NCBI RefSeq assembly: GCF_000027005.1
Contig: NC_012965.1
Span: 1,103,001-1,167,000 of the forward strand
Direction: 5' to 3'
Origin: Komagataella phaffii GS115
Lineage: Eukaryota > Ascomycota > Pichiomycetes > Pichiales > Pichiaceae
DNA: 64,000 bases
The translations under genes and the position numbers were made by a program. Positions 52,301 to 56,631 of the stretch are shown piece after piece. The notes under the pieces were generated by a model. That model saw only the letters and a program-made list of their open reading frames with translations. It made no database searches and was not told the DNA's origin. Positions within the stretch are counted from its first letter, which is position 1. Each line of letters opens with the position of its first letter.

Positions 52301-52987
52301 ATGATCTTTTTATGGTGGCTGCTGGGAGTTATCCATCTTGTGAACGCTAATACTGAGACGTTATTGGTATATGCTGATCCTGCGTATGAAGTATATGATT
52401 ATGGGGATCTGAATTCTCATGAAAGGACGACAATTCCATGTTCCCTAAACTTGAGCCAAGTTTATGGAGGTGACGTCTACTTGCACCGTCCTGGAAACCC
52501 TTGTCCAATTGAGTTGCATAATTCTTGGACTCTTCCGCCAATCAAGACGATACATCGGTTAAACGTTGAAAAGGGGTCAACTTATTTTGTTTCTCTTTGC
52601 TGGAGTGCAATTTTTCCTGTTGATTTTAGTCTTAGCTATGTGGTGGAAAAGAGCGAGGCATCCAACGATAATGACATACGACAAAACTTCACAGTGGACA
52701 CCCCAATTGAAGAGTTGCAAGGAGCGATTCCTGGGATATATCTCATTGTTGAGGCCAAACCTAACTTCTTTGCCCTGAGAAACTCTAACTTTAAACAATA
52801 TCTCGATGAGATACAGTATCAAATCAACGTGGAGCAATGTATTCTTGTGCCTGGATTGACCGAAAGAATACTCAAACTAGCGGGTAAGATTATGCTAGTT
52901 GCAGTGATAGCATTGTTTATAGCGACCAAGATGAGTCTATGGTTAAAGCAGCTGGCCTTAACTCCAGCGAAGATCAAATTGCGTTAA
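52301..52987 (+). CDS. PGA1: Probable GPI-mannosyltransferase II accessory subunit, Pga1-like
   Basis: A 228-residue predicted ER membrane protein: signal peptide (IFLWWLLGVIHLVNA) ending before NTETLLV, a lumenal domain with two cysteine pairs and two or three N-glycosylation sequons (NLS, NFT), and a single C-terminal membrane helix at about 195-213 (IMLVAVIALFIATKMSLWL) with a short basic tail KIKLR. Size and topology, and the NTE start after the signal peptide, resemble yeast Pga1, which with Gpi18 adds the second mannose to GPI precursors. The primary sequence match is weak, so the name is tentative. Its stop overlaps that of the next, convergent gene. Confidence 0.55.
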   Translation: MIFLWWLLGVIHLVNANTETLLVYADPAYEVYDYGDLNSHERTTIPCSLNLSQVYGGDVYLHRPGNPCPIELHNSWTLPPIKTIHRLNVEKGSTYFVSLCWSAIFPVDFSLSYVVEKSEASNDNDIRQNFTVDTPIEELQGAIPGIYLIVEAKPNFFALRNSNFKQYLDEIQYQINVEQCILVPGLTERILKLAGKIMLVAVIALFIATKMSLWLKQLALTPAKIKLR

Positions 52988-53307
52988 ATGTGCCTTCCCA
53001 ATGCAAATCCAAAAGTGAAACTGAAACTCACAATGATGACTCCTGCACAACTCAAATGAAAGGCCATATCCGACGAGCTAGGCTGTTCAGGGTCCTTCCT
53101 GAACGGATAAGGGGGGAATTGAACCATGTCTTCTTGTTCACTGTCTGTTAATGGGTTAGACAAGGAGCCTTCAGTTGTTGGAATTGGACTATGTTCCCCG
53201 CTGTCAAGAATATCAGCAGTTGCAACGGATGACAGGTCCACCCAAGAGTGACCTAGCAGATGCTGTGGATGGTGGTAGGCATACTGCAATTTGTCAGTAA
53301 ACGTCAT
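52984..53307 (-). CDS. Small predicted tail-anchored protein, function unknown
   Basis: 107 residues from the ATG at 53307; I do not recognise it. The N-terminus is aromatic and His-rich (DKLQYAYHHPQHLLGHSW), the middle is acidic and Ser/Pro-rich, and residues about 86-105 form one hydrophobic helix (CAGVIIVSFSFTFGFALG) ending two or three residues from the C-terminus (RHI). That is a tail-anchored or mitochondrial outer-membrane/ER topology. The TAA stop (52984-52986) overlaps the PGA1-like stop. The open frame continues upstream only with a TTG codon. Because it is short, it could be spurious, but the terminal TM helix and sharp frame favour a gene. Confidence 0.55.
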   Translation of the reverse strand: MTFTDKLQYAYHHPQHLLGHSWVDLSSVATADILDSGEHSPIPTTEGSLSNPLTDSEQEDMVQFPPYPFRKDPEQPSSSDMAFHLSCAGVIIVSFSFTFGFALGRHI

Positions 53308-53428: not shown

Positions 53429-54010
53429 TTATAAAGCCATGAGCGCAGCACCGCCGACGAGTCCAACTAGTCCCCATTGAGCAGAGGCAACTTGACCACC
53501 ATTCAAATAAAGTGTGGTTGTTGTAGGGTCAGGAGTGTTATCGAATCTACCCCAAGTACGAGTGGTGGTAGTTTCGGAAGTTGTGCTAGGCGTGGTCTTA
53601 TCAAACCTTCCCCAAACATGAGTGCCGCTAGAAGTAGTCGTCACGCTGGGTGTAGTCTTATCGAACCTACCCCACGTTGTTGTTGTGGAGAGAGTTCGTG
53701 TGGTGGTCGTCGGTGTGGTTTTATCAAATCGACCCCATTGATGCGTCCCCGAGGAAGTTGTTGTTGAAGAAGGCGTAGTCTTGTCGAATCTACCCCAGGT
53801 ACTGGTGCTAGTAGAGCCAGAACTTCCCACAGTATTGTAGTAGTAAGAGTAAGGTGTAGTCTTGTCAAATCTTCCCCAGGGTGTAAAGATGGACACCGAC
53901 ATGTCGGTTATGGTAATTGTGACTACATGGGCATCGGTGGCTGTTGAATCGGCGGTCGGAGTGACGGTGTTGATTGCAAACAAGCTCACCAAGAAACTGG
54001 CAAATTGCAT
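53429..54010 (-). CDS. GPI-type cell-wall protein with six WGRFDKT repeats
   Basis: 193 residues: signal peptide (QFASFLVSLFAINTV), a Ser/Thr-rich stalk, and a C-terminal GPI signal (small residues around N170-G172, then hydrophobic 178-193). Embedded in the stalk are five exact WGRFDKT copies (45-51, 72-78, 92-98, 113-119, 133-139) and a sixth, WGRFDNT (153-159). Spacing is 27 residues once and then 20-21. Codons differ between copies: F is TTT or TTC, R is AGA, AGG or CGA, D is GAC or GAT. So the peptide is being kept while the DNA drifts. A mannosylated wall protein is expected; the role of the heptapeptide is unknown. The next gene is a paralogue. Confidence 0.8.
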   Translation of the reverse strand: MQFASFLVSLFAINTVTPTADSTATDAHVVTITITDMSVSIFTPWGRFDKTTPYSYYYNTVGSSGSTSTSTWGRFDKTTPSSTTTSSGTHQWGRFDKTTPTTTTRTLSTTTTWGRFDKTTPSVTTTSSGTHVWGRFDKTTPSTTSETTTTRTWGRFDNTPDPTTTTLYLNGGQVASAQWGLVGLVGGAALMAL

Positions 54011-54168
54011 CTTGTGTTGTTTGATGTTTTAAGTCAGAATTCGGTGGAAACTTAAGGGTCCGCATAATAAATAATACAGAAAAAAAAAGAAAGCAACCAG
54101 AAAGGGAAATAAAGTTCAAAAAATTCTAAGTGTTAACAGGAATATATTAATGAGTCTATGGTATCTCT

Positions 54169-54567
54169 CTACAAGACCATCAGTAAACCGAGGCCAGCAG
54201 CACCAACTAAACCGAACTGGGCACCAACCGAGGCAGCCAAACCTTCATAACTGGAAGTGGTAGTGTTGGAGTGGTTAGAGCTGTTCGAACCGTTAATAAC
54301 AACTTCTCTGTGAACAACACCGTCGTACGAGAATATGGTGGTAGTGGTAGGATCTGGAGTTTTGTTAAATCTTCCCCATCTGTGAGTACCTGAAGAAGTG
54401 GAAGTTGTAGAAGGAGAAGTCTTGTCGAATCTTCCCCATCTGTGAGTCTCAGTGGAAGCGGTGGTCACAGTTGTGGTGACAACGTGAGCATCGGTAGCCT
54501 CGTCCTGAGCAACAATGGACACAGCATTTAGGGCAACAAAGCCAGCAAACGCAGTGGAAAACTTCAT
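54169..54567 (-). CDS. GPI-type cell-wall protein with two WGRF(D/N)KT repeats
   Basis: 132 residues from the ATG at 54567 (the open frame extends upstream to 54675, but the signal peptide begins here: KFSTAFAGFVALNAVSIVA). It shares with its neighbour the ATDAHVVT start of the mature chain and the heptapeptide, at 44-50 (WGRFDKT) and 64-70 (WGRFNKT, itself a glycosylation sequon). Four more N-glycosylation sequons cluster at 92-103, before a short GPI signal (GLAASVGAQFGLVGAAGLGLLMVL in the last 25 residues, quoted in part: AQFGLVGAAGLGLL). A tandem duplication with later loss or gain of repeats is the simplest origin. Confidence 0.8.
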   Translation of the reverse strand: MKFSTAFAGFVALNAVSIVAQDEATDAHVVTTTVTTASTETHRWGRFDKTSPSTTSTSSGTHRWGRFNKTPDPTTTTIFSYDGVVHREVVINGSNSSNHSNTTTSSYEGLAASVGAQFGLVGAAGLGLLMVL

Positions 54568-54984: not shown

Positions 54985-56631
54985 CTAGTTAAAGTTAAAG
55001 CTTTGCTGTTGCGATGGATCAGCGGAATTTACTCCAAATGTAAAAGCGTCACCAGAGGCTTCTGGCTGTAACCCAGTATCCTCCAAGTCACCATCATCCT
55101 CACCAAAATACTGCTCGATCATCTGGTATGCCTTCTTATAGATCTTCTCATTCTCGTTATTTTGACAGTCAAAGATTTTCTCCATGCCACCAGCTTCTTC
55201 AATATACATAGCATTCTCGTTGTAGGGAGCTCCACGAGCTTCCTTATCCAACTCTCCCATCTTCAAAATGTTCTCCAGGGCATCAAGTGTGACTTCGATA
55301 ATTTTGTTGTCTGCTACAGCGAGCAGATCACACAATGGTTTGATACACCCCTGGCTAACAAGGTATCGGATCTGATCAGGGCGAACAAGCCCTCCGGAAG
55401 ATGCATTAGAAATAGCCCAGCATGCTTCCTTTTTTGTTTTGTAATCGGCAGTGACCAAGAGACGAATAATCTGTGGGATCAAGTTGCAATCAATGACTGC
55501 TTGGATCTGATCTGGGTTTCCTGCAGTAATGTTGGAAATAGTCCAGCATGCTTCCTTCTTTATAGTCTCCTTTGGAGAGTCTAGTAGTGGTAACAGTGCA
55601 GGCAATACACCAGCGTTGATCACTACTTGGGTTTGTAGGTCGTTACCAGTGACGATGTTACCAACAGCACGAAGCGCTGGAGTTTGTACATCTGTAGATT
55701 CATGGCCTAACAACTCAACCAATCTTCTAGGAATACGAGCGTCAACAACTGCCTGGATGGCATCTGAAGACCCATCCGATAGATATGAAATGGCCCAACA
55801 AGCGTCAATCAAGGTTTCAATATCAGTGGAATAGATCAACTTGGCCAGTGTAGGAAGTGCTGCAGAAACAACGTTCCAGTCAGGTTGTGGTTTCTTACCA
55901 CGACATAAATTGGACAATGTCCAAGTCGCCGTGCGAATCAAAGAAATCTTTGAGGAATTGAATAGCTCGAGTACAGGACCCATGACGTTACAGCTCAGCA
56001 CGTAATCTCTGAAGGCAGATGAATCACCAGAAACATTACCCAAAGCCCAAATGGCTTGCTCACGTACTTCAATGGAAGGAGATTTGAGCAGTTGAACAAA
56101 CAATGGAACTGCGCCAGCCTCAATGACAACCTTAGTTTGGTCGGAGGAACCCGAAGCAATGTTAGTCAAAGCCCATGCAGCCTCCAATTGTAGAATTTCC
56201 TGTTGATCTTTCATGAATTCAACTAGTCTTGGGACTACTCCACTCTGGATCACAAGTTCGATGGGAGGATTATACTCGCGCGATAAAATCTGTCGAAACT
56301 TCATGGTTGCCTCCACCTGACTCTCCATGTCGTTTGAGTTAATCTTCTCCATCATACGAGGCAGCTCTTTCTGTAGCTCCAAATAAAACTGGTTGTCCTC
56401 CACATTAATTTCATCTTCGTTCTCGGAGTCATCTTCTTGTGGGACGGATCCTTCTCCAGGATTCACAAGAAAACGTCTCTTGGCTAGGGTTTCATCTCTC
56501 TTGGCCTTACGAAGCTCAACTTGTTGGGTTTCACGACGCCTTCTTAGCTCATCTTGCTGGAACCGTCCCTTGTTCTTGAAGTTGGTTCTTCTGTACTCGG
56601 GAACAAATCTAGAAGTGGTATCTGAGTCCAT
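54985..56631 (-). CDS. SRP1: Importin alpha (karyopherin alpha) Srp1
   Basis: A 548-residue importin alpha, the adaptor that binds classical nuclear localisation signals and importin beta. The N-terminal IBB domain is basic ([37 protein letters not shown]), followed by ten armadillo repeats carrying the NLS-contacting W-x-x-x-N arrays, seen as [67 protein letters not shown] and [11 protein letters not shown]. The C-terminus is acidic and ends SFNFN. Length matches Saccharomyces Srp1 (542). Confidence 0.97.

What the first reader, a model, noticed from the sequence alone, without database searches (positions are those of the whole stretch)
53429..54567. Tandem GPI-type wall genes built on a conserved WGRF(D/N)KT heptapeptide
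Two adjacent minus-strand genes share a mature start ATDAHVVT, a Ser/Thr stalk, a GPI signal and a heptapeptide: six copies at a near-constant 20-21-residue period in one, two copies in the other. Between copies the codons differ at nearly every degenerate site (for example GGA/GGT, AGA/AGG/CGA, TTT/TTC, GAC/GAT, AAG/AAA), so the amino acids are constrained while the DNA has drifted. That is not what a young, slipped tandem repeat looks like. A tryptophan-glycine-arginine-phenylalanine module in a mucin-like stalk, unlike the PIR glutamine repeat I know of, suggests an unnamed wall-linking or recognition element. I do not recognise the motif.
Basis: partly seen in the sequence, partly recalled or inferred. 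Interest (0 to 1): 0.8.

Follow-up and report, generated by a model that had tools for sequence, protein, structure and literature searches.

The report
Tandem yeast wall hydrophilin genes (YNL190W/PGA14)
Two neighbouring yeast genes make cell-surface proteins built on a strictly kept short peptide repeat; they belong to a known family of wall proteins called hydrophilins, but what the repeat itself does is still open.

Summary
Genes at 53429-54010(-) (193 aa) and 54169-54567(-) (132 aa) carry 6 and 2 copies of WGRF[DN][KN]T; a degenerate DNA pattern finds no other copy in the 9.2-Mb host genome. Synonymous sites between copies are near saturation while the peptide is fixed: pN/pS 0.034 in the heptapeptide, 0.59 in the linkers. 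It is not an unknown protein. Searches reach a budding-yeast family with H-[KR]-[YW]-G-[RK]-F-[DN]-K-T on a 20-residue pitch; sources name members 'Hydrophilin PGA14', 'Hydrophilin' or 'YNL190W', and a printed Candida albicans Pga14 peptide matches two members exactly. The neighbour is importin alpha, as in one other yeast-like record. Deletion of a Komagataella phaffii 'YNL190W' was published in 2026 (passages). So these are members of a known kind, one a divergent tandem paralogue. Open: the motif has no Pfam model, its strings were found in no yeast-wall paper (by title), and both window proteins miss the hydrophilicity cut-off of hydrophilins yet keep the motif. I read it as a sticky wall-contact site; that is inference.

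The parts
53429..54010 (-). 193-aa gene, 6 copies; divergent tandem paralogue of the YNL190W/PGA14 hydrophilin family
54169..54567 (-). 132-aa gene, 2 copies; closer to the family consensus, 92% identical over 133 to K. pastoris BA75_00651T0 (P0007)
53951..54010 (-). likely signal peptide of the 193-aa protein (residues 1-20)
   Evidence: read by eye; no predictor run
54508..54567 (-). likely signal peptide of the 132-aa protein (residues 1-20)
   Evidence: read by eye; helix 7-14 in a low-confidence model
53918..53941 (-). ATDAHVVT, residues 24-31 of the 193-aa protein
54475..54498 (-). ATDAHVVT, residues 24-31 of the 132-aa protein
53858..53878 (-). copy A1 WGRFDKT
53777..53797 (-). copy A2 WGRFDKT
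53717..53737 (-). copy A3 WGRFDKT
53654..53674 (-). copy A4 WGRFDKT
53594..53614 (-). copy A5 WGRFDKT
53534..53554 (-). copy A6 WGRFDNT; the FDNT form lies in the last copy in 7 of 7 cases among 45 multi-copy proteins
54418..54438 (-). copy B1 WGRFDKT
54358..54378 (-). copy B2 WGRFNKT (N makes an N-x-T sequon; K. pastoris has D)
53432..53503 (-). likely GPI-attachment tail of the 193-aa protein (residues 170-193)
   Evidence: by eye; no predictor run
54172..54243 (-). likely GPI-attachment tail of the 132-aa protein (residues 109-132)
   Evidence: by eye and alignment; no predictor run
54985..56631 (-). importin alpha (SRP1-type), the only Arm_3 match found in the genome; syntenic marker upstream of the pair

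Best explanation
The two genes are a tandem pair of the YNL190W (Saccharomyces cerevisiae) / PGA14 (Candida albicans) family of small, secreted, GPI-type cell-wall proteins called hydrophilins, beside importin alpha, in a Komagataella genome (by inference most likely K. phaffii). Shown by sequence: family membership, tandem pairing, a mostly 20-residue pitch, and strong constraint on the motif. Inferred: the Ser/Thr linkers are O-mannosylated disordered spacers, and each H-[KR]-[YW]-G-[RK]-F-[DN]-K-T unit is a basic-aromatic 'sticker' that makes many weak contacts with wall glucan, phosphomannan or other copies. Held in the wall by the GPI remnant, such multivalent chains would help the wall stay cohesive and less permeable through drying, rehydration and solvent stress. 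My split: family identity about 0.95, sticker mechanism about 0.4.
For: Family: searches listed 8, 24 and 38 entries, 51 distinct (one the window's own). Source names include 'Hydrophilin PGA14' (P0031), 'YNL190W' (P0047) and UniRef 'Hydrophilin' (P0011, P0020, P0021, P0029). The Pga14 peptide in PMC5858828 (passage) is the start, after Met, of P0028 and P0033; PMC8229660 calls Pga14 a hydrophilin (passage). Synteny: residues 1-88 of P0009 match the last 91 of the window's importin alpha at 64% and run straight into family repeats. Motif constraint; 137 of 141 units anchored only on TH[KR] fit xG[RK]F[DN]xT; of 12 invariant columns in a 23-sequence alignment 7 lie in the two nonapeptide copies and 2 more are the Thr just before them. 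Pitch: 82 of 102 spacings are exactly 20. Passages only: YNL190W found among wall proteins in a flor-yeast proteome (PMC5412306); ynl190w deletion lowered survival of drying, 13% against about 35% (PMC3306391); K. phaffii deletion of 'YNL190W' raised secreted antibody more than 2-fold at plate scale, for which the authors suggest wall structure or secretory burden (PMC13343958). The AlphaFold2 model is disordered: mean pLDDT 45.7, 99 of 132 residues under 50.
Against: A strain lacking 8 non-essential hydrophilins, ynl190w included, still dried well (PMC6054528, passage). Expressing YNL190w in its deletion strain brought survival to the reference level and not above it, unlike five other hydrophilins (PMC3306391, passage). 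The antibody gain did not carry over to a second protein, albumin, for the wall knock-outs as a group (PMC13343958, passage). The window proteins miss the hydrophilicity cut-off. No tool tested sugar binding, O-mannosylation or GPI attachment. The passages seen do not say which of the two genes was deleted. The 193-aa paralogue has lost HK/HR before W in 6 of 6 copies, so the full nonapeptide is not needed in every copy; some members carry D, A, K, H or N instead of the aromatic (16 of 154 units), against a strict need for it.
Confidence: 0.6

Rival explanations
1. Generic hydrophilin: the protein works only by its hydrophilic, disordered bulk (water retention, shielding), and the motif is a frozen sequence habit of that bulk.
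For: Family name and drying phenotype in S. cerevisiae (PMC3306391, passage); disordered model; 10 of 15 members pass the hydrophilicity cut-off in their mature part, and the window proteins miss it narrowly there (0.79, 0.94).
Against: Whole-protein hydrophilicity is 0.36 and 0.08 here, and none of 15 members passes whole. Net K+R minus D+E of the mature part ranges from +29 in a relative to +2 and -2 here while the motif stays. Bulk chemistry would not fix Gly, Phe and Thr.
Confidence: 0.22
2. Covalent wall cross-linker, PIR-like: the D/N in the motif is an acyl-linkage site to glucan.
For: D or N stands at that place in 154 of 154 units, a place that the pattern left free.
Against: No Gln in the motif and no PIR-repeat match. 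N there makes an N-x-T sequon (70 of 154 units; the T was fixed by the pattern, but is T in 137 of 141 units), better explained by glycosylation. No biochemical data.
Confidence: 0.1
3. Processed secreted peptide or recognition signal released from a precursor.
For: Repeated short peptide in a secreted protein; some relatives have Lys-Lys after the motif (for example P0002, P0029).
Against: Neither window protein holds a pair of adjacent basic residues (sequence); most full-length members end in a hydrophobic tail of GPI type.
Confidence: 0.03
4. Young slippage repeat with no selection on the peptide.
For: Copy number varies from 1 to 6 across 52 sequences and some members have near-identical units (P0029), so arrays do expand and contract.
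Against: pS 0.85 against pN 0.03 between copies here; the motif is kept across budding yeasts.
Confidence: 0.02

Closest known systems
S. cerevisiae YNL190W (hydrophilin, cell-wall protein)
   Same: Secreted wall protein with internal repeats and N-glycosylation (PMC4508530, passage) and a putative GPI site (PMC4528334, passage); a relative bears its name (P0047). By systematic number it neighbours YNL189W; papers holding both YNL189W and SRP1 are listed, and that SRP1 is importin alpha and adjacent is recalled.
   Different: Its own sequence was returned by no call. From memory its units have Tyr and Lys where the window has Trp and Arg, and by its number it lies upstream of SRP1, whereas the pair here lies downstream.
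Candida albicans PGA14
   Same: P0028 and P0033 begin with the Pga14 peptide printed in PMC5858828; two copies on a 20-residue pitch.
   Different: One YGRFDKT and one YGKFNKT; linkers richer in charged residues than in the window.
K. pastoris BA75_00651T0 (P0007)
   Same: Orthologue of the 132-aa protein, 92% identical over 133.
   Different: Second copy reads WGRFDKT instead of WGRFNKT.
PIR proteins
   Same: Repeats in a wall protein (recalled).
   Different: No PIR repeat found.
C. albicans Pga59/Hwp1-type proteins
   Same: Small GPI wall proteins; a V/T-rich Pga59 octapeptide forms fibrils (PMC9877000, passages).
   Different: The Pga59 paper's main text holds no FDK string; Pga59 itself was not compared.

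Membership tests
YNL190W/PGA14 hydrophilin wall proteins | Sequence homology to named members | tested here: met
YNL190W/PGA14 hydrophilin wall proteins | H-[KR]-[YW]-G-[RK]-F-[DN]-[KN]-T units on a ~20-residue pitch | tested here: met
   the 193-aa paralogue keeps only the heptapeptide core
YNL190W/PGA14 hydrophilin wall proteins | Neighbour is importin alpha (SRP1) | tested here: met
   seen in one other record (P0009); for S. cerevisiae only by nomenclature and recall
YNL190W/PGA14 hydrophilin wall proteins | Signal peptide and GPI attachment | tested here: inconclusive
   by eye and alignment only; no predictor run
Hydrophilins in the compositional sense (Gly above 6%, hydrophilicity above 1, 50-80% coil; as quoted in PMC3306391) | Gly above 6% | tested here: met
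   8.3% and 9.1% whole; mature parts 6.7% and 5.7%, so the 132-aa protein misses it when trimmed
Hydrophilins in the compositional sense | Hydrophilicity index above 1 | tested here: not met
   0.36 and 0.08 whole, 0.79 and 0.94 mature (mean of minus Kyte-Doolittle; mature = minus first 20 and last 24 residues, a crude cut of mine). Of 15 members tested 0 pass whole and 10 pass mature; the other mature failures are P0007, P0016 and P0047, so missing the cut-off is not special to this genome
Hydrophilins in the compositional sense | Mostly coil | tested here: inconclusive
   disordered low-confidence model of the 132-aa protein, pLDDT 45.7; 193-aa protein not modelled
PIR proteins | PIR repeat | tested here: not met
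   no PIR match

The most novel reading that the evidence does not exclude
A nine-residue cell-wall module, H-[KR]-[YW]-G-[RK]-F-[DN]-K-T, kept mostly at 20-residue pitch across budding yeasts and absent from the domain libraries searched (Pfam, NCBIfam), is a specific wall-contact site: a sticker that binds glucan or mannan, or itself. 'Hydrophilin' would then mislabel the family, since composition drifts, as in this Komagataella pair, while the motif is held.
Probability: 0.37. Interest if true: 0.55.

Novelty: new member of a known kind. Interest (0 to 1): 0.33.

Why it matters
It turns an apparently unknown repeat into a placed gene family in what is probably a much-used production yeast, where deletion of a gene named YNL190W raised antibody yield (PMC13343958, passages). 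The motif's constraint gives a direct, testable reason to ask what the repeat binds, rather than treating the family as bulk protectants against drying, a role on which two yeast studies seen here in passages point different ways.

Tried and rejected
Pfam, NCBIfam and PDB sequence searches gave no family or structure for the window proteins (PDB only for the 193-aa protein; the weak matches listed are below cut-offs and look unrelated). Motif strings in papers: WGRFDKT, WGRFNKT, WGRFDK, WGRFNK in 0 papers; GKFDK, GRFDK, YGRFD, WGRFD, GRFNK, GKFNK in 6 papers, none on yeast walls by title, none opened. A link to Pga59/Pga62, my first guess from memory, found no support. The K. phaffii GPI deletion library table (PMC7446130, section 5 read) lists no 193- or 132-aa protein; the nearest lengths are GCW58 (194 aa, but with an SRP1/TIP1 domain) and GCW14 (135 aa), and annotated lengths may differ, so absence from that library is likely but not shown. 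dN/dS between orthologues was not computed, as no K. pastoris DNA was at hand. A four-codon pattern gave 89 hits against 46 in its control and says nothing. A looser pattern for G-[RK...]-F-[DN]-x-T gave 14 hits against 2 in its control, 8 of them in the pair. Of the other 6 I looked at 2: one reads GKFNKT in an open stretch of only 28 codons, the other GRFDQT once in an unrelated 332-codon frame; 4 were not looked at. A Kuraishia member as query found only this pair. No STRE (AGGGG/CCCCT) upstream of either gene. Selections: one search counted 52 sequences (51 entries plus the 132-aa protein); 23 of these, mostly full length and picked by me, went into alignment A3; one search left out 4 fragments by hand (P0005, P0024, P0033, P0048) and then used the 45 with two or more copies; the hydrophilicity test used 15 of 52, picked by me. 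Protein searches score only candidates that share exact words (7,993 and 7,988), so family size is a lower bound.

Full report
What is there. On the minus strand, importin alpha (54985-56631; IBB and Arm domains; the only Arm_3 match found in the genome) is followed by a 132-aa ORF (54169-54567) and a 193-aa ORF (53429-54010). Both start with a hydrophobic leader of about 20 residues, share ATDAHVVT at residues 24-31, go on as a Ser/Thr-rich stretch without cysteine, and end in a short hydrophobic tail of GPI type (leader and tail judged by eye). The 193-aa protein holds six heptapeptides, the 132-aa protein two. The host genome has 9,216,378 bases in 4 contigs. With a 92%-identical K. pastoris orthologue of the 132-aa protein, I infer a Komagataella, most likely K. 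phaffii; the karyotype is recalled.

Is it more than chance? A degenerate pattern for WGRF[DN][KN] finds 8 places in the genome, all in these two genes, and its reversed control none. A looser pattern gives 14 hits against 2 in its control; 8 are the pair, 2 of the other 6 were looked at and are unrelated, 4 were not looked at. Across all 28 pairs of the 8 copies synonymous sites are near saturation (pS 0.848) and nonsynonymous sites nearly unchanged (pN 0.029). In the 6 units with a following copy the heptapeptide shows no amino-acid change, while the linkers have pN 0.425 and pS 0.718. The pairs are not independent, so the ratio is a description and not a test. Linkers carry some constraint too: A2 and A4 are 85% alike in linker protein but 51% in linker DNA, both keeping SSGTH, which recurs through the family.

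What it is. A single-sequence search found 8 entries, a profile of eight sequences 24, and a profile of six distant members 38: 51 distinct entries, one of them the window's own protein. Nineteen carry an organism name. Eighteen of these are budding yeasts (Komagataella, Ogataea, Kuraishia, Wickerhamomyces, Metschnikowia, Suhomyces, Candida, Lachancea, Zygosaccharomyces, Henningerozyma, Monosporozyma, Maudiozyma); one, P0009, is labelled as a basidiomycete and is probably a contaminant. The searches score only candidates that share exact words, so this is a lower bound, and motif presence among hits is partly what found them. Source names tie the family to YNL190W (P0047) and PGA14 (P0031), and UniRef calls four further members Hydrophilin. 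An independent link: the C. albicans Pga14 peptide printed in PMC5858828 (passage) equals the start, after Met, of P0028 and P0033. P0009 is an importin-alpha C-terminus (64% over 91 residues to the window's) read straight into family repeats, so the neighbourhood and order are seen once more. In S. cerevisiae YNL190W and YNL189W (SRP1) are neighbours by systematic number; that is nomenclature and recall, and would place the gene on the other side of SRP1.

Anatomy of the motif. Over 52 sequences and 154 units found with G, R/K, F and T fixed, the free positions read H (146), K or R (141), Y, W or F (138; the other 16 are D, A, K, H or N), then D (84) or N (70), then K (124) or N (28). Of 102 spacings 82 are exactly 20. 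Anchoring only on TH[KR] gives 141 units, of which 137 fit; 1 misfit is a shortened unit (P0016) and 3 are overlapping anchors. In a 23-sequence alignment 12 columns are invariant: 7 lie in the two nonapeptide copies and 2 are the Thr just before them. Where position 7 is N the unit forms an N-x-T sequon (70 of 154 units; the T was fixed in that search). The form FDNT occurs 7 times among 45 multi-copy proteins, always in the last copy; at least two of these seven come from Zygosaccharomyces, so they are not seven independent cases. Copy B2 here is N where K. pastoris has D.

The two paralogues differ. The 132-aa gene keeps the family's THR before WGRF in both copies and uses common codons more than the nine other window genes measured (0.719 against 0.409-0.558, with a preferred-codon list of mine from memory), which hints at strong expression. 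The 193-aa gene is ordinary in codon use (0.503) and has lost HK/HR before W in all six copies while holding the heptapeptide. It reads as a tandem duplicate whose array expanded and then drifted; whether K. pastoris has its counterpart is unknown, as none appeared.

Is it a hydrophilin? By descent, yes. By the compositional definition quoted in PMC3306391, not here: Gly passes in the whole proteins, but hydrophilicity is 0.36 and 0.08 whole and 0.79 and 0.94 mature. Of 15 members tested none passes whole and 10 pass as mature parts; P0007, P0016 and P0047 also fail. The miss is therefore narrow in the mature part and not special to this pair, and the index is my own simple version. Net charge of the mature part runs from +29 in one relative to +2 and -2 here, yet the motif is intact. 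With this is the argument that the motif does something specific.

What is known of function, all from passages. YNL190W is counted as a wall or GPI protein (PMC8783092, PMC4528334, PMC5412306), listed with internal repeats (PMC4508530) and tabled as a wall protein for the desiccation response (PMC11277543). Its deletion lowered survival after drying and expression in that strain restored the reference level (PMC3306391), but a strain lacking eight hydrophilins including it dried well (PMC6054528). It fell in expression in a freeze-thaw-resistant strain (PMC7913288). In K. phaffii, strains with strong YNL190W expression among other wall genes resisted wall dyes, and the authors suppose thicker walls (PMC7003935); deletion raised antibody titre more than 2-fold (PMC13343958), while wall knock-outs as a group did not change albumin secretion. 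C. albicans Pga14 is called a hydrophilin induced in wall regeneration and was detected only in the fluconazole-sensitive strain of that study (PMC8229660). None of these passages deals with the motif. AlphaFold2 gives a disordered chain (mean pLDDT 45.7), as expected of a spacer-and-sticker protein but no proof of one.

Verdict. What is left is a modest but real question: why this nonapeptide at this pitch. The sticker model is my inference; no call tested binding.

Noticed in passing
P0009 (record named Cerrena zonata QCA50_012144, 597-kb contig): A protein filed under a basidiomycete is a fused gene model of yeast-type importin-alpha C-terminus and hydrophilin repeats; the assembly is probably contaminated or mislabelled.
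   Followed up: partly
52301-52987 (+) and 52984-53307 (-): A Pga1-like gene (Pfam GPI-mannosyltransferase II co-activator) overlaps tail to tail by 4 bases with a 107-aa ORF that ends in a hydrophobic stretch and has no Pfam match.
   Followed up: no
family-wide (P0001, P0018, P0023, P0030, P0039, P0041, P0047): The FDNT form of the motif occurs only in the last copy of the array, 7 of 7.
   Followed up: partly
54169-54567: The 132-aa gene has stronger codon bias than the nine other window genes measured, suggesting an abundant wall protein.
   Followed up: partly
G000:C1:1721725-1721741 (-): A lone GKFNKT-coding match elsewhere in the genome lies in an open stretch of only 28 codons and looks like chance.
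   Followed up: yes
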